Source of the DNA: an uncultured Anaerobiospirillum sp.
Lineage (GTDB): Bacteria; Pseudomonadota; Gammaproteobacteria; Enterobacterales; Succinivibrionaceae
Length of the DNA stretch: 58,615 nucleotides
Reading direction: 5' to 3'
Assembly (NCBI GenBank): GCA_944390115.1
Contig: CALXOW010000119.1
Location: 1-58,615 of the forward strand
Below are positions 1,209-54,795 of the stretch, piece after piece. Every line of letters begins with the position of its first letter. Position 1 is the first letter of the stretch. The notes under the pieces were generated by a model. That model ran no database searches and had not been told where the DNA came from. It worked only from the letters and a program-made list of their open reading frames with translations. A program made the translations under genes and the position numbers.

Positions 1209-1284
1209 GCTGGATTAGCTCAGTCGGTAGAGCAGTTGATTCGTAATCAAAAGGTCGCAAGTTCGATTCTTGTATCCAGCACCA
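1209..1284 (+). tRNA. thrW: tRNA-Thr (CGT anticodon), prophage attachment gene
   Basis: A 76-base tRNA with acceptor stem GCTGGAT/ATCCAGC, D-arm GCTC/GAGC, anticodon loop TTCGTAA (anticodon CGT, reading ACG threonine codons), the variable region AGGTC, a T-arm with TTCGATT loop and an encoded CCA end. It closely resembles E. coli thrW, a well-known integration target for tyrosine-recombinase elements. The prophage starts inside it: bases 1243-1284 are repeated at 54754-54795, so the 3' half of the functional gene is now supplied by the phage copy and the tRNA stays intact. Its original terminator is displaced to 54804. The symbol is by analogy. Confidence 0.95.
1243..1284 (+). repeat. attL core, 42-base direct repeat
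   Basis: Identical over 42 bases to 54754-54795. It runs from the last base pairs of the anticodon arm through the CCA end of the tRNA. The base before it differs (C at 1242, T at 54753) and so do the bases after CCA, which fixes the core length. Confidence 0.93.
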
Positions 1285-1468: not shown

Positions 1469-2659
1469 ATGGCTAGAGTAAAGCTTACCCAAGCGCTACT
1501 TAACCGCTTGCTTTCCCAAACTTCCCCTAAGGTTACCTTCCGCTATTTGGTCGACGAGAGTGGCTTAACCCTCGTACACCGCACCACCCCCACCGGATCA
1601 ACTCTTCTCTATCAATTTCGCAAGCGCTTCAAGGGCCATCTTTTCGTTAAGGCGATCGGCGGCTATCCGGCTATGAGCATCGCCACGGCCCGCCATGAAT
1701 TTGCCGCCATGGTCACGCAGCTGGTGCACACCGGCAGCCTCGAGGAAGAGCAAGTTAAGGAACCTGCCGCCGCCCCAACTTTTGGCGAACTTTTAGATCA
1801 GTTCCTCGAGTTCAAGAAGGCCCGCGTTAAGGCCTCAACCTTCCGCGCGGTGGATAACTTGTTTAGGCACACGGCTGTGCTGCGCCCAATGCCCATCACC
1901 GAGGTCACTGCCCAAATAGCTTATGAGCAAGTCTTCTCTAAGCTTACCGACCGGCCTGCAATTATGGCCAATCTCAAAATCCATATCCTGTCTTTTGGCC
2001 GGTACTTAGTGGCAATTGAGGCCACGCTTAAGAACCCGTTTGAGGGACTTAGGATCTTAGTTCAGACCGAGCAAGGCGGACACCTGCGCACTTTTGCCGA
2101 TAACGAACTTAAAGAGCGCATGACAGATCTCTTTAACAAGTGCGCAGACCTGCCGCTCGAGCAACAAGCCTTAATTCACTTTCACTTCTTCGTGCCACTG
2201 CGCAAAGCTGAAGTGTATTCGATCACCCTCGACCAAGCTCATAACGCTACCGAGGTCACTGTGAAGACTAAGACCATGGATGCGTTCACCATGCCGCTGC
2301 CCGAGCAGGCTCAAAAGATTGTGGCTTGGATGTATGAGCATAAGCGGCCGCTGCAAAAGTTCCTGTTCTGCGGCCGTCGCGATCCAACTGCGAAAGTTAA
2401 CCCTACCACATGCCAACAAATCTTTGAGGCGCGCAAGATCGACTTTACGATCCACTCGGTGCGCTCTTGCATGACGCAGTATTTGATCAAGTACACGGAC
2501 GTGAAAGAGACGGTGGCTAATCTGTGCCTGTCGCATGTGGTGGGCGGTGCAGTCGAGCAAGCTTATAACCGAGGTTCCTACCTCGAAGAGCGGCGCCATG
2601 CTTTGCAGCTGTGGGCTGATTTTGTGGAGAAGTGCATCGGCCCGCACAAGTTTTACTAA
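1469..2659 (+). CDS. int: Tyrosine recombinase integrase (P4-type)
   Basis: A 396-residue site-specific recombinase that would integrate and excise the prophage at the tRNA-Thr gene. The N-terminal 90 residues resemble the DNA-binding arm domain of P4-like integrases, residues 100-195 the core-binding domain, and the C-terminal half the catalytic domain. Visible catalytic residues are Arg245 (PLRKAEV), His329 and Arg332 (HSVR), the histidine in LCLSH and the nucleophile Tyr366 (AYNRG). An AGGAG site at 1454 supports the ATG at 1469. It lies 184 bases after attL, the usual place. It is transcribed toward the lysis genes, so the integrase separates attP from the late operon in the circular phage. 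Confidence 0.93.
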   Translation: MARVKLTQALLNRLLSQTSPKVTFRYLVDESGLTLVHRTTPTGSTLLYQFRKRFKGHLFVKAIGGYPAMSIATARHEFAAMVTQLVHTGSLEEEQVKEPAAAPTFGELLDQFLEFKKARVKASTFRAVDNLFRHTAVLRPMPITEVTAQIAYEQVFSKLTDRPAIMANLKIHILSFGRYLVAIEATLKNPFEGLRILVQTEQGGHLRTFADNELKERMTDLFNKCADLPLEQQALIHFHFFVPLRKAEVYSITLDQAHNATEVTVKTKTMDAFTMPLPEQAQKIVAWMYEHKRPLQKFLFCGRRDPTAKVNPTTCQQIFEARKIDFTIHSVRSCMTQYLIKYTDVKETVANLCLSHVVGGAVEQAYNRGSYLEERRHALQLWADFVEKCIGPHKFY

Positions 2660-25145: not shown

Positions 25146-27188
25146 ATGGGGGCCGCAATGGCTAAGAACGTATCAAGCAAAGCAAAGACAGCGGACGTGA
25201 TGCCGCTTGTGGACGATCAGGTCTATAGCGGTTCGTTCGTAGGCGACTTGACCGGCAATGCTGACACTGCGACCCGCCTTGCGCAGGGCTATCACATCCA
25301 CCTGCAAGGTGATGTAACGGGCACCATCTTGACTGATGGCGGCGCGGACACGACTTGTGAAGTTACTGTCCTTAAGGCGGCCATGGCCACTGATGCACAG
25401 CATGCGGCGGTGGCTGATTCGGTGGGCCATGCTGCCACGGCTGACACTGCCACTCAGGCAGTAAGTGCGCAGCATGCTTTTGCTGCCGACAGTGCCAAGA
25501 CTGCGACTAATGCGGACTTTGCTAAGCAAGCCGAGATGGCGCAGAAAGCATCTGAAGCCACAAGTGCTCTTAGCGCTACCACTGCCACGACTGCGGCGCA
25601 TGCTGACTTTGCTGAGTTAGCCGAGAAGGCGGCGCAAGCTGAGAGCGCGCAAATTGCCTATGAGCTGCAGAATGACGCAGATCACCCAGTCCCTGAAGCC
25701 ACGCATGCCAAGAGCGCCGATGAGGCTCTTCATGCGCAGCGCGCTGACTATGACTGCCTAGGTCGCTTAATCCATGGCACCTATCTGACCAAGGAAGAAG
25801 GCGTTAGCAAGGAAGAAGCTTTTGACCAAGAGTTAGCCGATATCCTTTATGCGCGCAAAGATCAAATTATCACGCAGGCCACGATTACAGGTAAGGCACT
25901 GGGTTCAGGCTTTGTCACGAACCAAACTTTAAACTTAGTTGTGACTGATTTAGCGCTGCGCTCAGACGGCAGTGCAGGTCTATATGAAGATCTGATTTTT
26001 GTTGACCAAGATCACCTGCCGGATAGCCCTAACACCACTAAGGCCTATATCACATCAGATCAAGTCTTATGGCTCTATAACGTCGATGCGCTCCAATGGG
26101 TGGATGTGCGCAGCAAGCTCACGCCCGAGGCGCAGGCGATCTTAGACAAGCTTAAGGACTTTGTCGATCTGACTTCAGATCAAGTTATCCACGGCACTAA
26201 GCAATTTTGGGATCCAGTCTATGCGCCGATCCCTTCTCTGACTGATGCCCCAGATCACGCCGTCGCGGTGTTGCACAACCTGCGCGACTTGAAAGAGAAG
26301 CTCGAGGCGGCGATCAGTTCTGGAGACCAAACCATCAAGATTGACCTTGATGAAATTTGGCAAAAGTTAGAAGAGCTTGAAGATCTTGTTTACGGCGTAT
26401 CGCACTTAGGTGACGTCTATATCACACCGGTAGACCTTAATCTAAGCAACAACACTGTGAACATGATACCGGGCGCGGTCTATGTAGGCTATCTCGAAGA
26501 AGATAAGACATTCATACCACTTAATCCGGACACCTTCGAGCAACTCGACCCCGAGCAAGTCCCGTACTGGGAACGCCGCTGGTCTAAGGACAGCAATGGC
26601 GTAATCAAATACAAGGATGTGCCTTTTGTTGGCAAACAGACTAACTTAAGTTACAAGTTGCTCGATCACGTACCAACTGCCGAAGAAGCTGAAGACTTCG
26701 AGGAAGAGACTTGGTACTACTACCCTGCTCGTGACGCCATTGGTGAAGAGACGGGTGGCGGCGGCGGTGCTGCGCTTTCGGGCGAATTTACATCCATGAA
26801 CTTCTTAGAAAGCGCTTCGATCGATACTGCCACGGTACAGAACGGCCAATTCAATCTTTACCCAGTTGGTGACCTGATTACGGGGCTTGGCAGCGGTGAC
26901 CTGCCGGGCGGTGGCGGCACCTCGACCTTAGCCGGTGACTTCAAGGCGATCGAGTTTAAGGAAGGTGCTGACGTCACAACTGATGTCCCAGCTGTAGGCA
27001 ACCTGAACTTCTACCGTGCGGGCAACATCTTGAATGATGCCGATGTAACCGTGCCGGTGGGGCCGGGTGGAGACTTCACTAAGATGGCCTTTAAGGAAGA
27101 TGCTGACATTAATACTGATGTGGTTGATGCGGGCAGCTTTATCCTTTACCCAGTTGGTGACACCTTAGACAGTGGAGACAAAGACTAA
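25146..27188 (+). CDS. Tail fibre/appendage protein with repeats
   Basis: A 680-residue protein two bases after the ejection gene; the ATG at 25158, preceded by a G-rich stretch, is an alternative start. Residues about 70-205 are imperfect Ala-rich repeats of the ADTATQAVSAQHAFAADS type, likely a fibrous stem. The C-terminus has three repeats beginning near residues 545, 597 and 641, each with a GDFxxMxFxE part followed by FNLYPVGD or similar. The same F-x-Y-P ending occurs in the products of 28192-28650, linking these proteins as a family. It probably attaches to the nozzle and presents or receives adhesin modules. Confidence 0.7.
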   Translation: MGAAMAKNVSSKAKTADVMPLVDDQVYSGSFVGDLTGNADTATRLAQGYHIHLQGDVTGTILTDGGADTTCEVTVLKAAMATDAQHAAVADSVGHAATADTATQAVSAQHAFAADSAKTATNADFAKQAEMAQKASEATSALSATTATTAAHADFAELAEKAAQAESAQIAYELQNDADHPVPEATHAKSADEALHAQRADYDCLGRLIHGTYLTKEEGVSKEEAFDQELADILYARKDQIITQATITGKALGSGFVTNQTLNLVVTDLALRSDGSAGLYEDLIFVDQDHLPDSPNTTKAYITSDQVLWLYNVDALQWVDVRSKLTPEAQAILDKLKDFVDLTSDQVIHGTKQFWDPVYAPIPSLTDAPDHAVAVLHNLRDLKEKLEAAISSGDQTIKIDLDEIWQKLEELEDLVYGVSHLGDVYITPVDLNLSNNTVNMIPGAVYVGYLEEDKTFIPLNPDTFEQLDPEQVPYWERRWSKDSNGVIKYKDVPFVGKQTNLSYKLLDHVPTAEEAEDFEEETWYYYPARDAIGEETGGGGGAALSGEFTSMNFLESASIDTATVQNGQFNLYPVGDLITGLGSGDLPGGGGTSTLAGDFKAIEFKEGADVTTDVPAVGNLNFYRAGNILNDADVTVPVGPGGDFTKMAFKEDADINTDVVDAGSFILYPVGDTLDSGDKD

Positions 27189-28195
27189 TGACGCAGCTGA
27201 TGCAAGGTGACTGCCTTGAGCTGATGGCCAAGATGCCCGAGCACAGCATCGACTTAGTTTTGTGCGACCTGCCCTATGGCGTGACTAACTTCGCTTGGGA
27301 CAAGTGCTTGTCCCTTGATGCGTTATGGGCCCAGTATCAGCGTGTGCTCAAGCCGTGTGGTTTAGCGGTGCTCTTTGCTTCTCAAAGCTTTGCTGTCGAC
27401 CTTGCTGCGGCAGCGCGCTCTTATTACAAATACAGCCTGACTTGGGTTAAGAAGTGGCCTACTAACCCGCAGAATGCCAAATATCAACCACTGCGGCGCA
27501 CCGAGCAAATCTTAGTCTTTGCTATGCCGCGCGCGGGCAATCACAACTTCCTGCCCAAAACGCGCGGCTATATGCTGCAAGAGCGTGAGAAGACTGGGCT
27601 TAGTAACATCGCGCTGCAAGAACTCTTAGGCAGCCAAATGACTAGCCACTATTTCACCAAGGGTGGGCAGTTCATTTTGCCAACTAAAGAAGCTTACACG
27701 AAGCTGCAAAGCACGGGCTTCTTCACTATGCCTTACGAAGAGCTGCGCGCCCAGTACGAAGAAGAGCGCGCGGCCATACCCAAGGCCATGCCGACCTACA
27801 ACCCACAAGGCTTAAAGCCCTGCGGGCGCACCCGACTTAAACGCAAGAATGTAGGGCGTGATGGCTTTGGCTGTCACACGATCTCACAAGAAACAAAGGT
27901 TTATACGCAAGAGTTCACGGGCTATCCCGATGATCTGCTTTACTTCGATGTGGAGCCGGTAGGCGGGCGGGTGCACCCTTCGCAAAAGCCTGTGGACTTG
28001 CTCGAGTGGCTTATTAAGACCTACTCGAACGCAGGTGAAACGGTTTTAGATAATTGCATGGGCTCGGGTTCGACCGGCGTGGCCTGCCTCAAGGCGGGGC
28101 GGCGCTTTGTAGGAATGGAGCTAGACCCACGCTATTTTGAACTAGCGCAAAGCCGCATTGGTGCTGCCGAGCGCATGGAACAAAAGGAGAAATGA
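27188..28195 (+). CDS. Orphan DNA methyltransferase, beta-class N4/N6
   Basis: A 335-residue SAM-dependent DNA methyltransferase. The catalytic motif IV is DLPYG (residues 27-31) near the N-terminus and the SAM-binding motif (CMGSGSTG, about 291) near the C-terminus, the order that defines the beta class. A variable central region (110-260) would choose the target. There is no restriction gene nearby. It could protect phage DNA from host restriction or regulate transcription. It is coupled by ATGs to tail genes on both sides (TAATG at 27188, ATGA at 28192), an unusual location. The target is unknown; GATC is a possibility only because GATC clusters occur in this prophage. Confidence 0.88.
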   Translation: MTQLMQGDCLELMAKMPEHSIDLVLCDLPYGVTNFAWDKCLSLDALWAQYQRVLKPCGLAVLFASQSFAVDLAAAARSYYKYSLTWVKKWPTNPQNAKYQPLRRTEQILVFAMPRAGNHNFLPKTRGYMLQEREKTGLSNIALQELLGSQMTSHYFTKGGQFILPTKEAYTKLQSTGFFTMPYEELRAQYEEERAAIPKAMPTYNPQGLKPCGRTRLKRKNVGRDGFGCHTISQETKVYTQEFTGYPDDLLYFDVEPVGGRVHPSQKPVDLLEWLIKTYSNAGETVLDNCMGSGSTGVACLKAGRRFVGMELDPRYFELAQSRIGAAERMEQKEK

Positions 28196-28650
28196 GCATG
28201 GCAGAGTACGCAAATGCAGCCATTAAGTTTAAGGACAATGATGGCAATTCGGGTACTGTCTACGGTCTGAGCACCAAGGATGTTAACACTCTTAACACCG
28301 CAGTTGCTTTAACCAAGACTAACCAATCTGACATTGCAGCCTTAAAGGCTGCGCTGCCGGGCGTAGGTGAAGGCGAGCCAATTGACCTTAGCAAGATGGC
28401 GAAGGTCGATGCAGCTAACACCTTCACGGCGGCTAATACCTTCTCGCAAAACGTCACCATGTCGGTAGCCCAAGACGATTACAGCGCCATTGAAGACCAG
28501 CACTTAGTCACGGGCAAAGCCTTAAAGGCGGTTGCTGCCATGGCCTCGGCTTCAAGTGTTAAGTTTGTTGACAGCAAGCCTGAAACGGGGGGCATGGAAG
28601 CTGGAACCTTCTACTTCTATCCAGCTGAAGACAATCTCACTAGCGATTAA
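28192..28650 (+). CDS. Small tail-fibre-associated protein
   Basis: A 152-residue protein starting in an ATGA overlap with the methyltransferase (a second in-frame ATG follows at 28198, MAEYANAAI). The middle has the ANTFTAANTFSQNVTM pattern common in phage fibre stems, and the C-terminus ends GTFYFYPAED, matching the repeats of the 680-residue fibre. A run of six G (28585-28590) lies in frame near the end. Role: probable fibre or fibre-cap component. Confidence 0.6.
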   Translation: MSMAEYANAAIKFKDNDGNSGTVYGLSTKDVNTLNTAVALTKTNQSDIAALKAALPGVGEGEPIDLSKMAKVDAANTFTAANTFSQNVTMSVAQDDYSAIEDQHLVTGKALKAVAAMASASSVKFVDSKPETGGMEAGTFYFYPAEDNLTSD

Positions 28651-28875: not shown

Positions 28876-30021
28876 ATGGCCGCTTTAGAGGACTTCTACA
28901 CAGTGCCGCAGCTGAAGCATCTCTTTGTGAAAGATGGTGCGACTGGGGCAAAAGGCTTCTTTGATTTTGATGGTGTGGTCTCACGGCTTGACAGCATCGA
29001 GTATGACTTAAGCCGCATCAAGGGCGACATCATTGCGATTAACGAAGTGGGGGACAATCTCGAGGCGGCCTTAGCGGAAGTAACGGCCGCGCTTGCTGAG
29101 ATTAAGGACATTAGGGAAGAGCTCTTAGCGCAGTTTGCGGCACTAGAGCAAAGCACTAAAGAAGGATTAGACGCAGCCAATGACCGAATTGATGCGCTTA
29201 ATACTGCGCTGGGTGCCGCCGTTAACCGTATCACTGCCCTCGAGGGCGTAACGGCGCAGCTGACGGCACGCTTAGACAACTTAACTGCCGAGGTCACGCA
29301 GCTCCAGCGTGACTTAGTGGCCCTTCGAGCTGACGTGACTAAGCTGCAAGGTGACTTAGCGCAGCTGCGCACTGACCTCGAGGCCTTAAGCGCCGAGGTG
29401 GATGCGGTTAAGCAAGACCTGCTAGACAACTACGCAAAGCTAGCAAGCCCGAATGTGTTCAGTGCGCAGAATGACTTCACAGCCAAGCTAACCTGCGCGC
29501 AAGCACCTATGACCGAGCTCGATGTAACCAATAAGAGCTATGTTGATACCGAGTGCAAGAAGGCTTACTTGCCTACGGGCTCTATTATCGCTTTTGCGGG
29601 CGTTAACCCGCCTGATGGCTATCTCTTATGTGATGGTGCGGCAGTGGAGAAGCAAGGCTTCCCAGAACTGTACGCAGTGATAGGCGACACCTATGGCGAA
29701 ACAGATTTAACCTTCAACTTACCTGACCTGCGCGACCGCTTCATTCAGGGTGGTACTGAACCAAGCCCAAGGACGCAAGATGCATCGCTGCCTAACATCC
29801 GTGGCAACTTCACGGGCTTTGGCACGCCTGACCTGTATCATGATGGTGCCTTCACGTGCACGGGTGTAGCCTCGGATGCTGTGAGCGGCGTGACCGAAGG
29901 CAATGCACGGCGCATGCTCTTCGTGAACTTCGACGCGTCCGAATATAGTTCTTACTACAAGGATGGAACTAGCAAGGTAGTCCCGCCTTCTTACGTGATG
30001 CTGTATCTGATTAAGGTGTAA
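28876..30021 (+). CDS. Tail fibre with coiled coil and phage tail collar domain
   Basis: A 381-residue fibre. The N-terminal 55 residues (TGAKGFFDFDG, SRLDSIEYDL) share an anchor module with the fibre at 30459. Residues about 60-200 are regular heptad repeats forming a trimeric coiled coil. From about residue 235 there is a phage tail collar domain (GSIIAFAGVNPPDGYLLCDG, DLRDRFIQGG), a module found at the tips of many fibres. It would be a trimeric receptor-contacting or connecting fibre. Confidence 0.82.
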   Translation: MAALEDFYTVPQLKHLFVKDGATGAKGFFDFDGVVSRLDSIEYDLSRIKGDIIAINEVGDNLEAALAEVTAALAEIKDIREELLAQFAALEQSTKEGLDAANDRIDALNTALGAAVNRITALEGVTAQLTARLDNLTAEVTQLQRDLVALRADVTKLQGDLAQLRTDLEALSAEVDAVKQDLLDNYAKLASPNVFSAQNDFTAKLTCAQAPMTELDVTNKSYVDTECKKAYLPTGSIIAFAGVNPPDGYLLCDGAAVEKQGFPELYAVIGDTYGETDLTFNLPDLRDRFIQGGTEPSPRTQDASLPNIRGNFTGFGTPDLYHDGAFTCTGVASDAVSGVTEGNARRMLFVNFDASEYSSYYKDGTSKVVPPSYVMLYLIKV

Positions 30022-30023
30022 GC

Positions 30024-30449
30024 ATGGCCAAAATGAAGTTAGTTCCGTCGTACCGTTTTGACAAATATGGCTATTACATTGGTGCAACGGTATCGATGCA
30101 AGACCTGACCACGGGGCGCATGTACCTGCCGGGTGACTGTGTAGCTTTTGCCCCGCCTGATGGTTCTGGGTGTTGGCGCATTGCGCAGGATAAGAGCGCA
30201 TGGGAAGCGGTGCCCGCAGTAAGCGAACTGGACGCGCATGACCTTGTGGTCGGCCTCGAGGACGTGACCGAGCGCGGGGCCCAGATTAAGGCGCGCATGC
30301 TCGAGGAAGAGCGCAAGGGCAAGATGGTGCGCTGTATCGACCGCGATAACCGCGCATGCTACCTAACGCCGCTTAGGGGCCGTGTTACTGCCACGCCATT
30401 GCCCGAGCTCGAGCGGCGCCGGGCCTATGCCTTAGCGCTGGGATTATAG
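30024..30449 (+). CDS. Small protein between tail fibre genes
   Basis: A 141-residue protein. The first half is beta-like with YGYYIGATV and TGRMYLPGDCVAF; the second half is helical and charged (ARMLEEERKGK). It is encoded two bases after one collar fibre and nine before the next. Fibre assembly chaperones often occupy such places, but I see no diagnostic motif of known chaperone families. Function unknown. Confidence 0.55.
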   Translation: MAKMKLVPSYRFDKYGYYIGATVSMQDLTTGRMYLPGDCVAFAPPDGSGCWRIAQDKSAWEAVPAVSELDAHDLVVGLEDVTERGAQIKARMLEEERKGKMVRCIDRDNRACYLTPLRGRVTATPLPELERRRAYALALGL

Positions 30450-30458
30450 GGGGAATCT

Positions 30459-31499
30459 ATGCCACTGCGACCAAAACAGAACTTAGATAACCTGACCTAT
30501 ATCCTAAGCAAAGATGCGACTTCAGGGGCTAAGGCAGGCTTTGACGTGCAGCGCATGCGTAACCGCCTGACCTCGATTGAGTATGACATCAACCACATCC
30601 AAGGTGACGTAGATAACATCTTAGGTGATGTGGTCACGAACATCTATACCGAGATTAATGACCTGCGCAGCTGGGTCACGGAAGAGTTTGGTGACTTCAA
30701 GGAATGGACGCAGGAAGAGATCGAGAACCTCAAGGACTGGGCGCAAAGTGAGTTCGAGAAGGTAAACGAAGAGCTCACTTACATCAAGACCAACTATGAG
30801 CACTTTGAGACGGGCACGCGCTTGCTCTTCTACCAAGCTGCGGCGCCTTCTGGATGGTCGATAGTACCGGGGCTTGAAGATGCAGCTGTGCGCATTGTCT
30901 CGGTGAACGGCGGCGCGGTAAACGCGGGCACATCCTTCCCAACTGTGTTTAAAGCGCAGGATGTGGGCAACACCACTTTAACCTTAAACCAGATTCCAGC
31001 GCATGGCCACTCCGGTTCTGCAAGCTCCAGCGGCTCGCACTCTCACTCAGGCTCAGCAAGCTCGAGCGGTGCGCATAGCCATAGCCTACTTGACACATCA
31101 GGCGGATCAAGCGGCTCAGGTTCATATGCTTTTGAAATGCAATACGCTGGCCCAGCGCCCGGCTTTTTGCGTGGCAACTTTACTGTGATTGAAAGCCATT
31201 CTGGAGCGCAAACTGTTAGTGGATTCCTGACAGGGGCGAAAAGTGAGCAAGGGACACCACAAACACCACCTAACCTCTCATGGGGCTGGATTGGCTTTGG
31301 CGGTCTTGGCGATGTTAGCTCAATCAAAGCCACTTCCGCTGGCTCACACTCGCACAGTGTCTCGGTAGGCTCCGCCGGTTCCCACACTCACACCGTTTCC
31401 GTAGGCAACACGGGCGGCGGGGGCTCGCATACCCATAGCATCGACCTGACTGTGAAGCATATCTGCGTAATCGTGTGCCAAAAGGAGATTGTTTTCTAA
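30459..31499 (+). CDS. Tail fibre with His-rich metal-binding tip
   Basis: A 346-residue fibre sharing its N-terminal anchor (SGAKAGFD, RLTSIEYDINHI) with the 381-residue fibre. A coiled coil (55-120) is followed by a collar-like domain (LLFYQAAAPSGWSIV) and, from about residue 181, many HxH motifs in Ser/Gly-rich sequence (SHSHSG, GAHSHS, SHTHTV, SHTHSI). In T4 gp37 such HxH motifs bind iron along the fibre needle; the same is likely here. The last residues are hydrophobic. It would be a receptor-binding or fibre-tip protein. Confidence 0.8.
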   Translation: MPLRPKQNLDNLTYILSKDATSGAKAGFDVQRMRNRLTSIEYDINHIQGDVDNILGDVVTNIYTEINDLRSWVTEEFGDFKEWTQEEIENLKDWAQSEFEKVNEELTYIKTNYEHFETGTRLLFYQAAAPSGWSIVPGLEDAAVRIVSVNGGAVNAGTSFPTVFKAQDVGNTTLTLNQIPAHGHSGSASSSGSHSHSGSASSSGAHSHSLLDTSGGSSGSGSYAFEMQYAGPAPGFLRGNFTVIESHSGAQTVSGFLTGAKSEQGTPQTPPNLSWGWIGFGGLGDVSSIKATSAGSHSHSVSVGSAGSHTHTVSVGNTGGGGSHTHSIDLTVKHICVIVCQKEIVF

Positions 31500-31837
31500 T
31501 GGCTAACTGTCCCTTCTTAGGCGCCCCGTGTCCCGAGCACAACAAAGAAGGCGGGTGTGCCCTGTATTTATCCTGCGACACCCAGAGCAACCAAACAAGC
31601 GCACGCATGGAAGGGTGCGCCTTAGTGCTAAGCACGCTGATGCAAGTGCACAGCGTTAACAACATGGCAGCTGTGGTCGATGGGGTGGGCAAGGTGCAGG
31701 CCGAGATCTCCAGCTCGCGCGTAGAGAACCTACAAGGTAATGGACTGGCGCTAAAGGTCTTAGGCCTGATGGCGCAGAAGGTAAAGGCGCAGCAAGGTGC
31801 TGCGTTAGAAGAGAAGGTTGAGGTGGAGCATGGCTGA
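31499..31837 (+). CDS. Cys-rich small protein before the paralogue cassette
   Basis: About 112 residues from the ATG at 31499, which overlaps the preceding stop (TAATG). The first 25 residues contain four Cys and one His (CPFLGAPCPEH...CALYLSC), a possible metal or Fe-S site; the rest is helical. It is coupled by an eight-base overlap to the first of the four paralogous tail genes. I do not recognise it; a maturation or assembly factor for the following proteins is conceivable. Confidence 0.55.
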   Translation: MANCPFLGAPCPEHNKEGGCALYLSCDTQSNQTSARMEGCALVLSTLMQVHSVNNMAAVVDGVGKVQAEISSSRVENLQGNGLALKVLGLMAQKVKAQQGAALEEKVEVEHG

Positions 31838-32629
31838 TTTTGTGGGGGACGGGCATAAGTACGGCCTGCGATGGTATAGCCCTTGGGCCCCGGTAACAAC
31901 GATAAGAGCCTAGGCTTTAGCGAAACTGGCTTTGTTGTATCTATAGGGGGCAAAAGCGTTAAGCTAGGCCTCGACGGGTGGGGCAGGGCTAATAATGTAA
32001 GTACAGGACGCGTCCAGTGTTCTAACGCTGTCGGCCAAGATGTCACTTACTTCCGCTTGGCCTATGATGCCGAGACCGGCGAAGCCTGCCCCTATAACGC
32101 TACCTTTATCACTGATATCCTCGACCAACCACTTGCTGATAACCAAGTGCTAGTTCGGCTTACCTTTAGCTATGCCAAATCTGAGCCTTCTTACTTCAAC
32201 ATCCAGCAATTGCCGTACTTATTTGCTAAAGGCTCCAGCTTTATTTTCACTTGCTACTTCTTAAGCGCAGGCACCAACTGGGATTTATGCTTTGAGTTTA
32301 GCGGCAGCAAGAAGGTCAAGGTGTACAGCCTGACCATGCGCCTTATTAGCGGTAAGTCCGCTCAGTTTGCGCCGTCCCCTATCAAAAGCGGTGCACTTCT
32401 TTACCTCGACACTACCACGGCATCAGTTATTGGCGCAGGTGGCAATAGAACCCCTTACACAGACGCAAACAACCTCAAGACAATTATCAACGTTCTGCCC
32501 CTAGCCCTTCTCTACAAGAGCGCAGGTGGTGGTCTGTACCAAATTAACCCGAGTAACTACGTATTACGCAGTGAGCTCGAAGCTTTGATTAACCGAGTTA
32601 CTGCTTTAGAGGAGAATACAGATGGCTGA
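31830..32629 (+). pseudogene. Tail-tip paralogue 1, broken by a one-base frame change
   Basis: The frame opens with MADF then GDGHKYGLRW, like its three neighbours, but stops at a TAG near 31908. The rest (VSIGG, LGLDGW, YFRLAYD, CFEF, then a C-terminal coiled coil VLRSELEALINRVTALEE) continues in the -1 frame to 32629. The frames overlap only between 31880 and 31908. Aligned with paralogue 2 (PWGEG), one extra G in TTGGGCCCC near 31887 would restore a protein of about 266 residues. This may be a decayed copy, a phase-off copy or a sequencing error. Homologous ATAGGGGG sits where paralogue 4 has ten G. Confidence 0.75.
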
Positions 32630-33458
32630 CTTCGTGCCGGATGGGCATAAGTATGGGTGGCGGTTCTCGAAGCCGTGGGGCGAAGGGTGGCGCTCAAACG
32701 ACCCGGAACACCGCCTTAAGTTCACAAAACTTAGATTCCAAATAGAGGTTGATGGGGCTAGCAAAACCCTTGGCCTTGATTCTTATTACTGCCCTAATGG
32801 CCCAGCTTTTAATTTTCAGGCATCACCGCGTATTTTTTACTTTGTTCTAAGCTATAGCAACGCCGGCGAAGTCCCATACTCGGAAACTAAATTAACATCC
32901 AGCCCCGTTGGGCAGTCTTTAAACAGCAATCAGTTTTTGGTTAGGCTAACTGTATCTGCGACAGATTCTGACTATGCTTCTTGTGAAGGCTCGGTTCCAA
33001 AGCTCTTTAAAGATACCGCAGACAATATGAACGAAGGCAACGAGTATCACATCAGCGCCGCAAGTGAGCCAACAACACAGTATGATTTCTGTTTTGAGTT
33101 TAGCGCCGACAGCTCCCCTCAAGTCCAAAATTTCGGGGTTCGCTTTGCTAACTTCTCTGATGCTAGTGCAGGGGGTGGCAATCCCCCAGAGCTAACCGAA
33201 GAAAGTGAACTCTATTTATATATGGATGAGCTCGAAGTTTTGGCTTCAGGCGGGTGCGTTTTCCGTAATGGTTCAGGCATTGCCGCTGAAAGCTATAAGA
33301 GCATAACGTTGCCTGTCCCTTCCCCTATGTCCTGTCTCTACAAAGACCCCTCAGGTGCGCTCTATCAGCTCGACACTTCGGCCTATGCCACGCAAGCCGA
33401 GTACCAAAGCTTGTTAGCTCGAGTAGCTGCCCTCGAAGCGGCTAAGGCAGGTGCGTGA
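32622..33458 (+). CDS. Tail-tip paralogue 2, intact
   Basis: A 278-residue protein. It begins MADFVPDGHKYGWRF, contains the family landmarks LGLDSYY, FVLSYSNAGE, DFCFEF and CLYKDPSGALYQL, and ends in a short predicted coiled coil (YQSLLARVAALEAA) that could trimerise it. It has no long G run (the longest is five). Start and stop overlap neighbouring genes (8 bases and 3 bases). By position at the end of the fibre operon it is probably a receptor-recognition tip or adhesin; no known lectin or Mtd motif is recognised. Confidence 0.75.
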   Translation: MADFVPDGHKYGWRFSKPWGEGWRSNDPEHRLKFTKLRFQIEVDGASKTLGLDSYYCPNGPAFNFQASPRIFYFVLSYSNAGEVPYSETKLTSSPVGQSLNSNQFLVRLTVSATDSDYASCEGSVPKLFKDTADNMNEGNEYHISAASEPTTQYDFCFEFSADSSPQVQNFGVRFANFSDASAGGGNPPELTEESELYLYMDELEVLASGGCVFRNGSGIAAESYKSITLPVPSPMSCLYKDPSGALYQLDTSAYATQAEYQSLLARVAALEAAKAGA

Positions 33459-34288
33459 TGGCAGGTGAATTTGTGCCTGACGGTCATAAGTACGGACTGC
33501 GCTGGGCTGCGCCTTGGGGTGCAGCCCAAAACACTTACGGCGGCGATACGAAGAATCTCTTCTTCTCTCAGGTTGTCTTTGTTGCGTCAGTCGAGGGCGT
33601 GCCTGTAACCCTAGGCCTCGATGGGTGGTATATGGAAGGGCGTGACACAGCGCCTGCCGGTAACATTGGCGCTAACGCCGCTGATGTAACTCACGTGCTT
33701 TACTTCCGTTTAGCCTATGACCCCGAGACTAAGCAAGCCTGCACTTTTAATTCAACCTACGTGCCTGACCTGCCTGCCCAGTCTCTTGCTGATAACCAAG
33801 TCTTAGTAAGATTAACCTTCAACCTAGCTAAAGCCAAATATCAGAAAGTTAGCGGCGGTGCTTACCCTTATCTTTTTGCGGGCAAGACCTACGGCTCAGG
33901 TTACTTCCGTATCTGGACTAACGCATCACAAACCGGCTCAGGCTGGGATATGTGCTTTGAGTTCTCGGATGCAAAAGAAGTCAAGGTTCATAGCTTCTCG
34001 ATGGGCATTGCCACCCAGTCCGGCAGTCAGATAGGCGCAGCGGCAGGGGCTAGCCTGTACCTCGACGATCAAGAGCTGCCGCTTGTTGGGGGCTTAGTTG
34101 GCAACACTTACGGTGATACTAACGTGCGCACCATCCAGCTAATCGAGCCCGGCGCCTTTACGTATAAAAACAATGTGGGGAGGGGGGGGGGGGTCTATGA
34201 CCTTGGCGGCATGATCATGACCCGAGCACAACTGCGTGCACTCGAGGCGCGCATAACCTTACTAGAGGAAGCACAGAATGGCGAATGA
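33458..34288 (+). CDS. Tail-tip paralogue 3, in frame across G12
   Basis: A 276-residue protein (ATG at 33458 in a TGATG overlap; a GTG three bases earlier is also possible). It has the family start EFVPDGHKYGLRW, LGLDGWY, FRLAYDPET, MCFEFSD and a C-terminal coiled coil (QLRALEARITLLEEA). A run of 12 G at 34182-34193 encodes Arg-Gly-Gly-Gly in the YKN...VYD segment, equal in place to YKSAGGGLYQ of copy 1. With 11 or 13 G the frame would end within a few codons and lose the coiled coil. The current state is ON. Confidence 0.8.
   Translation: MAGEFVPDGHKYGLRWAAPWGAAQNTYGGDTKNLFFSQVVFVASVEGVPVTLGLDGWYMEGRDTAPAGNIGANAADVTHVLYFRLAYDPETKQACTFNSTYVPDLPAQSLADNQVLVRLTFNLAKAKYQKVSGGAYPYLFAGKTYGSGYFRIWTNASQTGSGWDMCFEFSDAKEVKVHSFSMGIATQSGSQIGAAAGASLYLDDQELPLVGGLVGNTYGDTNVRTIQLIEPGAFTYKNNVGRGGGVYDLGGMIMTRAQLRALEARITLLEEAQNGE
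34182..34193 (+). repeat. Homopolymer G12 tract inside tail-tip paralogue 3
   Basis: Twelve consecutive G preceded by GGGGA. The length keeps the gene in frame. Such tracts are prone to slipped-strand mispairing and are classic phase-variation switches. Confidence 0.9.
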
Positions 34289-35082
34289 GTTCACCCCTGA
34301 TGGCAACCGCTATGGTTGGCACTTCTTAAGCGGCTGGGGCATTGTTGGTTATTATGGCAGCAAAGCTACCGGCTTCGGGTTCAATAAAGTCAGTTTTGTT
34401 GTATCTATAGGGGGGGGGGCTTAGGACTTTAGGGCTAGACGGATGGGGCCGAGCTGATAACGCCAATACCCCTAGCTTGGCCCTAGTTCAAGAAGGTGAT
34501 CGCTATGTTGATTCGTTCTACTTCCGCTTAGCATATGACCTCGAGACTGGAGCAGCCTGCGCTTATAACGATTCATTTATCGAAAGCATATGCGAACAGC
34601 CGCTTTCTGCCAATCAGTTTCTTGCTCGTTGCACTATAAGCACTTCTGACCCTTCAGGCTTAAGCAAGAGTTCTCTTGCTTGCTTGTTCTCGAGCACACA
34701 GAATCTTACTTTGAACACTCGCCATGCAGGTGGCGACATGTGGGATTTTAGTTTTGAGTTTGATAAACGCAACTCGCCTGCGGTTAAGTCTTTATCTGTA
34801 AGCTCTCTTCATACTGGGCAGTCAAATGGCGCTCACGTCCGCGTATCTGCCGCGCATGACTTTAATCTCTACCTTGGGGACTATGAACGGCAGTTCACTT
34901 ATAGCCCTAACACTTACACCATTACTAACTTCCTGCCGCTTGGCTTGTCGTACAAGCATACCAACTGCGCGGTCTATATGCTGGAACATGGTGTAGCTAA
35001 GGAAGAGTTTGAAGCTTTAGCCGTTCGGGTCGCTGCCCTCGAGGAAGGTGCTGCGGCAGCTGCGCAAAGTGAGGCGTCTTAG
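34278..35082 (+). pseudogene. Tail-tip paralogue 4, phase OFF at G10
   Basis: The gene starts MANEFTPDGNRYGWHF at 34278 (11-base overlap with copy 3) and runs in frame to a tract of ten G at 34410-34419, after which it meets TAG. The remaining 220 codons (LRTLGLDGWGRAD, FRLAYDLETG, FSFEF, C-terminal coiled coil EEFEALAVRVAALEEG) are open in the +1 frame to 35082. Nine or twelve G would restore a protein of about 267 residues. Twenty bases upstream of and including the start of the tract are identical to copy 1. Because the rest of the gene is undamaged, a reversible OFF state is more likely than decay. Confidence 0.82.
34410..34419 (+). repeat. Homopolymer G10 tract inside tail-tip paralogue 4
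   Basis: Ten G between ATA and CTT codons. Ten is one more than needed for the frame, so this copy is switched off in the sequenced genome. Paralogue 1 has five G at the same homologous place. Confidence 0.9.
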
Positions 35083-54753: not shown

Positions 54754-54795
54754 GTAATCAAAAGGTCGCAAGTTCGATTCTTGTATCCAGCACCA
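54754..54795 (+). repeat. attR core, partial tRNA-Thr copy
   Basis: Forty-two bases identical to the 3' half of the tRNA gene at 1243-1284. It is the original host 3' end, now separated from its 5' half by the prophage. Confidence 0.93.

What the first reader, a model, noticed from the sequence alone, without database searches (positions are those of the whole stretch)
31830..35082. Four tandem tail-tip paralogues with G-tract switches: a phase-variable receptor-recognition cassette in a prophage
Seen: four consecutive related genes at the end of the fibre operon, all starting with GHKYGxRW-like words (NRYGWHF in copy 4), sharing LGLDGW/LGLDSY, YFRLAYD-like and FEF landmarks and C-terminal coiled coils. 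Two contain runs of 12 and 10 G, at two different homologous places. In this sequence copies 2 and 3 are ON, copy 4 OFF by one G, and copy 1 broken by one base. Known: poly-G slippage in receptor-binding proteins has been reported for Campylobacter phages, and BPP-1, whose capsid proteins resemble those here, switches tropism with a diversity-generating retroelement. Inferred: combinations of ON/OFF states would give virions with different receptor sets, a different solution to the same problem.
Basis: partly seen in the sequence, partly recalled or inferred. Interest (0 to 1): 0.92.

Follow-up and report, generated by a model that had tools for sequence, protein, structure and literature searches.

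The report
Phase-variable tail-protein cassette in a prophage
A virus lying dormant in a bacterial chromosome carries four related tail-type genes side by side, two of which contain long runs of G that probably switch them on and off, much as known Campylobacter viruses do with unrelated genes.

Summary
Four tandem paralogous genes (31,830-35,082) end the tail-fibre operon of a prophage that I bounded between two 42-base copies of a tRNA-Thr 3' end (1,243-1,284 and 54,754-54,795). Runs of 12 G (copy 3) and 10 G (copy 4) are the only G or C runs of 7 or more in the window and lie at two different aligned places. Copies 2 and 3 are open; copies 1 and 4 are each interrupted once. After either tract the two other frames stop within 6 codons. 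The genome has 12 further G/C runs of 9 or more, 7 in restriction-modification-like genes (6 Pfam-supported) and 2 in acyltransferase-type genes, which argues against a local assembly error. The proteins have no detectable relatives where I searched; a moderate-confidence model is a beta-sandwich with a C-terminal helix. Best reading: slipped-strand phase variation of receptor-recognition proteins. Closest precedent: Campylobacter phage F358, whose rbp1-rbp4 are tandem, with annotated polyG tracts in rbp2 and rbp3. Proteins, phage type and lifestyle differ, so I call it a new variant of a known kind. Switching and receptor binding are inferred, not shown.

The parts
1243..1284 (+). tRNA-Thr 3' end, left attachment repeat (tRNA at 1209-1284)
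   Evidence: ARAGORN; direct repeat found again at 54754
1469..2659 (+). integrase of the prophage
   Evidence: phrog_1 integrase E 3.6e-22
28876..30021 (+). collar-domain tail fibre
   Evidence: Pfam Collar E 5.7e-20; phrog_523
30459..31499 (+). second tail fibre, shares N-terminal domain with 28876-30021
   Evidence: phrog_2097 tail fiber E 3.8e-15; BLASTP E 6e-12
31499..31837 (+). small gene upstream of the cassette, function unknown; overlaps the start of copy 1 by 8 bases
31830..32629 (+). copy 1, interrupted once near its start (pieces 31830-31913 and 31880-32629 in different frames)
32622..33458 (+). copy 2, open, 278 aa, no tract
33458..34288 (+). copy 3, open, 276 aa, with 12-G tract near its C-terminal end
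34182..34193 (+). 12-G tract in copy 3, in a low-confidence loop before the C-terminal helix
34278..35082 (+). copy 4, out of frame across its 10-G tract (pieces 34278-34424 and 34411-35082)
34410..34419 (+). 10-G tract in copy 4, at the turn of a predicted N-terminal beta-hairpin (by alignment with copy 3)
54754..54795 (+). right attachment repeat (42 bases identical to tRNA-Thr 3' end)

Best explanation
A temperate phage with BPP-1-like late genes (probably a podophage) carries a cassette of four tandem paralogous tail-tip or accessory fibre proteins at the end of its late operon. Two copies hold long G tracts inside the reading frame. During DNA replication, as prophage or in lytic growth, slipped-strand mispairing changes the tract length; two of the three frames after each tract stop within 6 codons, so each tract gives one working state and two OFF states, and in-frame changes only alter the number of glycines in a surface loop. 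The phage population would therefore be a mixture of particles bearing different subsets of the proteins, which suits a host whose own surface and restriction-modification genes carry the same kind of tract. Shown: the tandem paralogues, the tracts, the frame consequences, the prophage boundaries, the tracts elsewhere in the host genome. Inferred: that the tracts change length at a high rate, that the products are on the virion, and that they recognise receptors.
For: Tracts are the only G/C runs of 7 or more in the window and both fall in the cassette, above Markov expectation. Off-frame stops after 6 and 1 codons (copy 3) and 3 and 0 codons (copy 4). Open reading on both sides of each interruption with normal codon usage. 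Both tracts fall in predicted loops or turns. Cassette follows two fibre genes and one small gene in a bounded prophage. Stop-start overlaps of 8, 8, 1 and 11 bases join the preceding gene and the four copies. Own genome: 12 further G/C runs of 9 or more, 7 in R-M-like genes (6 by Pfam, 1 by eye) and 2 in acyltransferase-type genes; all 11 genus genomes have runs of 10 or more. Precedent with the same layout: phage F358, with switching reported in passages of PMC8713573.
Against: No tract-length variation was observed: only one assembly is held and no relative of the cassette was found. No virion protein family matched any copy with significance. Copy 1 is broken at a place without a long tract, so simple decay is also at work. 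The one related prophage found (genome G028) has neither the proteins nor, in the 38 kb fetched, a G/C run of 8 or more. Runs of 10 G are not rare in the order: 67 of 98 genomes have one, and 18 of 47 genus tracts had no sense frame of 100 codons beside them. The structural match to Campylobacter phage tail-fibre proteins is weak and was not repeated with the second, poorer model.
Confidence: 0.62

Rival explanations
1. Decaying duplicates: the cassette is a relic of gene duplication, copies 1 and 4 are pseudogenes, and the G tracts are incidental or drift products.
For: Two of four copies are interrupted and copy 1's break has no long tract. Similarity within the array is low, 32-44% to copy 3. 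G runs of 10 occur in 67 of 98 genomes of the order.
Against: Each interrupted copy has a single break and is otherwise open with normal codon usage over 220 or more codons. Two G runs of 10 or more in one 3.3 kb cassette are not expected by composition. The same tract type recurs in R-M and acyltransferase-type genes of the genome.
Confidence: 0.17
2. Phase-variable, but not receptor-binding: the proteins are accessory products (virion decoration, superinfection or lysogen-surface proteins) switched by the tracts.
For: No family match places them in the tail; no homologue was found, so none has a known role.
Against: Position after the two fibre genes at the end of the late operon; beta-sandwich plus terminal helix; the best viral structure matches are Campylobacter phage tail-fibre-type proteins, weakly.
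Confidence: 0.13
3. Assembly or sequencing error: the tract lengths, and hence the ON/OFF calls, are artefacts.
For: Fragmented 123-contig assembly; two other contigs (C51, C81) begin about 80 bases from a long tract.
Against: Tracts in this genome, and the genus tracts whose frames could be classified, lie largely in the classic phase-variable gene classes, which errors would not produce; even if a length is off by some bases the tract itself remains.
Confidence: 0.05
4. Programmed slippage of RNA polymerase or ribosome on the G runs makes both products from one DNA sequence.
For: Long homopolymers can do this in principle (recalled).
Against: A paralogue lacking a tract is simply open (copy 2); tract positions are not conserved between copies.
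Confidence: 0.03

Closest known systems
Phase-variable RBP cassette rbp1-rbp4 of Campylobacter Fletchervirus phages (F358, MT863721)
   Same: Four tandem RBP genes, RBP2-4 alignable over their N-termini; polyG tracts annotated inside two of them, 9 and 17 bases. A PMC8713573 passage says two RBPs are phase variably expressed and create phenotypically diverse phage populations. The original paper (Cell Rep 35:109214) is not held.
   Different: Campylobacter phages with pectin-lyase-type RBPs and a DUF4376 chaperone gene, described as lytic (abstract of PMC10877375); no sequence relation found (copy 3; profiles); both tracts there sit at one shared N-terminal glycine site, here at two different sites, one near the C-terminus; here an integrated prophage.
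Bordetella phage BPP-1 and its diversity-generating retroelement
   Same: Partly related particle genes: 17572-25143 matches BPP-1 Bbp10 over 20% of its length at 25% identity, E 2e-18. Same purpose, variable receptor recognition, by inference (reverse-transcriptase-mediated tropism switching is cited in a PMC10579305 passage).
   Different: No reverse transcriptase match in the genome; variation would come from tract slippage and a set of paralogues, not from mutagenic homing.
Invertible tail-fibre segments (Mu and P1; cited in a PMC10579305 passage, otherwise recalled)
   Same: Reversible switching among tail-fibre alternatives.
   Different: An invertase was not looked for; all four genes are on one strand and switching would be at tracts.
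PolyG phase variation of host genes (Campylobacter surface genes, type III mod phasevarions)
   Same: Same tract type and gene classes occur in this host genome and its genus.
   Different: Here the switch lies in a phage late operon.

Membership tests
PolyG phase-variable RBP cassette (Fletchervirus type) | Several RBP genes in tandem | tested here: inconclusive
   Four tandem paralogues confirmed; that they are RBPs rests on position and fold only
PolyG phase-variable RBP cassette (Fletchervirus type) | Long polyG tract inside the reading frame of at least one | tested here: met
   12 G in copy 3, 10 G in copy 4, off-frames stop within 6 codons
PolyG phase-variable RBP cassette (Fletchervirus type) | Tract length varies within a population | not testable with these tools
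   No reads and no second strain available
PolyG phase-variable RBP cassette (Fletchervirus type) | Sequence homology to Fletchervirus RBPs | tested here: not met
   Copy 3: no tblastn match at E 0.01 in 50,697 phage records; hhalign of the four copies against RBP1-4 of F358: probability 0.3 on a 0-100 scale, E 0.18
PolyG phase-variable RBP cassette (Fletchervirus type) | DUF4376 chaperone gene next to the cassette | tested here: not met
   Upstream genes 31499-31837, 30024-30449 and 28192-28650 have no such Pfam match; the downstream gene is a DnaB-type helicase on the other strand
Diversity-generating retroelement | Reverse transcriptase gene | tested here: not met
   PF00078 gives no match in the genome (92.85% complete); the control rings in 3 of 14 known genomes
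BPP-1-like podophage | Late genes of that lineage | tested here: inconclusive
   One gene matches BPP-1 Bbp10 weakly and some other phages more strongly, 22 records in all; head-tail adaptor phrog_332 E 6.7e-138 and tail phrog_376 E 4.3e-160 do not name BPP-1; morphology not testable
Integrated temperate prophage | Integrase and duplicated attachment site | tested here: met
   Integrase, tRNA-Thr, 42-base repeats at 1243 and 54754

The most novel reading that the evidence does not exclude
A second, independent invention of polyG phase-variable receptor-recognition cassettes, in a temperate phage outside Campylobacter, with switch tracts arising separately in different loops of an otherwise unknown adhesin family; phage and host then run mirrored polyG phasomes, the host switching surface and restriction, the prophage switching adhesins.
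Probability: 0.5. Interest if true: 0.78.

Novelty: new variant of a known kind. Interest (0 to 1): 0.6.

Why it matters
Tract-based phase variation in phages appears only for Campylobacter phages in the passages I saw. A convergent case in an unrelated temperate phage would show that tract-based switching of adhesins is a wider phage strategy where hosts switch their surfaces, and that prophages can store a pre-diversified particle population. A 2025 review (PMC11868660, passages) remarks that multi-locus phase-variable genomes look restricted to pathogens, perhaps through database bias, and points to wider sampling across microbial and phage phylogenies; this host genus and prophage may be such a case.

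Tried and rejected
Homologues of the cassette: apart from the window itself none in viral contigs, genome contigs, phage records (copy 3), 98 relatives, 57 family genomes or 395 genomes of the order; the N-terminal motif as a DNA pattern gave 3 viral and 11 genome stretches, all 14 judged chance after an HMM check (best E 0.011). Related phages through neighbouring genes: tail-fibre alignment A2 drew generic fibre repeats (79 loci kept of a capped list; none with a cassette homologue); alignments A3 and A4 and the tail protein found nothing in viral contigs. One related prophage, in genome G028, has other genes at the fibre end and no G/C run of 8 or more in the 38 kb fetched.

Literature: the listings show, by title and start of abstract, no paper on polyG switching of tail genes in a temperate phage or prophage; several listings were capped (10 of 14, 15 of 127, 12 of 53, 12 of 27 shown). 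PMC10877375, PMC8713573, PMC11868660, PMC10579305 and PMC7099621 were read as passages only; the Cell Reports paper was not seen.
Full report
Setting. The window is the whole contig C119 of a 3.64 Mb, 123-contig genome that the tool places with 10 same-genus and 46 same-family genomes. Its name is not given; from the make-up of the order I suspect a Succinivibrionaceae-like bacterium, which is recall and not a result. The window holds a prophage: tRNA-Thr at 1,209-1,284, integrase at 1,469-2,659, terminase, head-tail adaptor (portal-type), major head and tail genes, a large late gene with distant matches in 22 phage records including BPP-1, DnaB-type helicase, antirepressor and RecE/RecT-type genes, and a second 42-base copy of the tRNA 3' end at 54,754-54,795, beyond which lie an AraC-type regulator and TRAP-transporter genes, presumably of the host. 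So the element is about 53.5 kb and looks intact. 'Podophage' is inferred from the BPP-1 match.

The cassette. The late operon ends with a fibre gene (25,146-27,188; phrog_454), a DNA methyltransferase gene (27,188-28,195), two fibres that share an N-terminal domain (28,876-30,021 with a collar domain, 30,459-31,499), small genes, and then four related genes. Against copy 3, copies 2, 1 and 4 are 34, 44 and 32% identical, copies 1 and 4 by their C-terminal pieces. Genes overlap stop to start by 8, 8, 1 and 11 bases, so they are probably translationally coupled and an OFF state in copy 3 could also lower copy 4 (inference).

The tracts. There are 12 G at 34,182-34,193 and 10 G at 34,410-34,419, and no other G or C run of 7 or more in the window. 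Simulated windows gave one G/C run of 10 or more in 2 of 40 (order-2) and 0 of 40 (order-3) cases, never two. Copy 3 is open through its tract. Copy 4's start frame ends right after its tract at 34,424, while its remaining part is open for 223 codons in another frame. After copy 3's tract the two unused frames stop after 6 and 1 codons; after copy 4's they stop after 3 and 0. The tract sites are different: copy 4's lies where the copy 3 model has a turn between strands 34-45 and 48-59; copy 3's lies in a loop with pLDDT under 50 before the terminal helix 256-274. Both are places where extra glycines would be tolerated (inference). Copy 1 shares the flank of copy 4's tract but has a short, interrupted G run there, and its own break lies upstream and not in a long run.

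Host context. The genome has 14 G/C runs of 9 or more, two of them in the cassette. Of the 12 others, six lie in genes with Pfam-supported restriction-modification domains (one MmeI-type, two N6/N4 methyltransferases, three type ISP), a seventh (C81) resembles the type ISP N-termini by eye, two lie in acyltransferase-type genes (C17, C40), one in a protein without a Pfam match (C33), one at a contig end without an assigned gene (C51) and one in a G-rich stretch without a clear gene (C24). All 11 genus genomes have runs of 10 or more. I fetched 40 places from 9 of the 10 other genus genomes, not every listed place. They hold 47 tracts of 9 or more: 18 had no sense frame of 100 codons within 60 bases; for the other 29 I scanned 30 sense frames: 11 DNA methyltransferase or R-M, 6 glycan or surface-modifying enzymes (one below its Pfam cut-off), 1 autotransporter-type protease, 2 AMP-binding, 3 oxidoreductases, 7 without a Pfam match. 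Six of those seven and four neighbouring frames gave no PHROG match except one at E 0.009 of unknown function. So among the tracts I classified the prophage cassette is the only phage case. Runs of 10 G also occur in 67 of 98 relatives across the order, so their mere presence is not special; their gene context is.

What the proteins are. No Pfam or PHROG family reached significance (best E 0.2), and no relative was found in any searched collection (see Tried and rejected). The copy 3 model is a beta-sandwich with a terminal helix. Position, fold and paralogous diversification point to tail-tip or accessory fibre proteins, which remains inference.

Comparison. The library lists five papers with all four of my terms on polyG, phage, receptor binding and phase variation; [quoted passage not shown] I fetched F358 itself: rbp1-rbp4 in tandem, polyG tracts annotated in rbp2 and rbp3, chaperone gene next to them; RBP2-4 align over their N-termini with the tract at a shared glycine motif. 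The window's cassette works like this by the features that can be read from sequence, but no relation was found, the chaperone is missing, and it sits in an integrated prophage. Hence a new variant of a known kind, probably convergent.

Weighing. For switching: tract length, frame logic, host context. Against: no variation observed, one break without a tract, no relatives, and G runs being fairly common in the order. For receptor recognition: location and precedent only. I put 0.62 on the whole reading.

Noticed in passing
own genome C2, C3, C4, C17, C33, C40, C48, C78, C81 (loci L048-L058): A set of long G/C tracts in MmeI-type, N6/N4-methyltransferase and type ISP restriction-modification genes and in acyltransferase-type genes: a candidate phasome of a non-model bacterium, with several type ISP copies carrying a tract near the same N-terminal place.
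   Followed up: partly
own genome C51:82-93 and C81:83-93 (L056, L058): Two contigs share a stretch of about 35 bases before the tract, then diverge just ahead of a long C run close to the contig end; assembly broke near the tracts or the loci recombine.
   Followed up: no
window 27188-28195: A DNA N6/N4 methyltransferase gene sits inside the tail-fibre operon.
   Followed up: no
window 25146-27188: The fibre protein ends in what look like three diverged repeats separated by glycine-rich linkers (by eye).
   Followed up: no
window 28876-30021 and 30459-31499: Two fibre genes share an N-terminal domain (BLASTP E 6e-12) with different C-terminal ends, so the particle may carry two fibre types besides the cassette.
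   Followed up: partly
L236:25911-30010 (phage CP8): The gene 48 tail fibre of NCTC12673 (one 4,098-base gene) corresponds to two annotated genes in CP8, and in several relatives the tblastn match to the second of these comes in two pieces.
   Followed up: no
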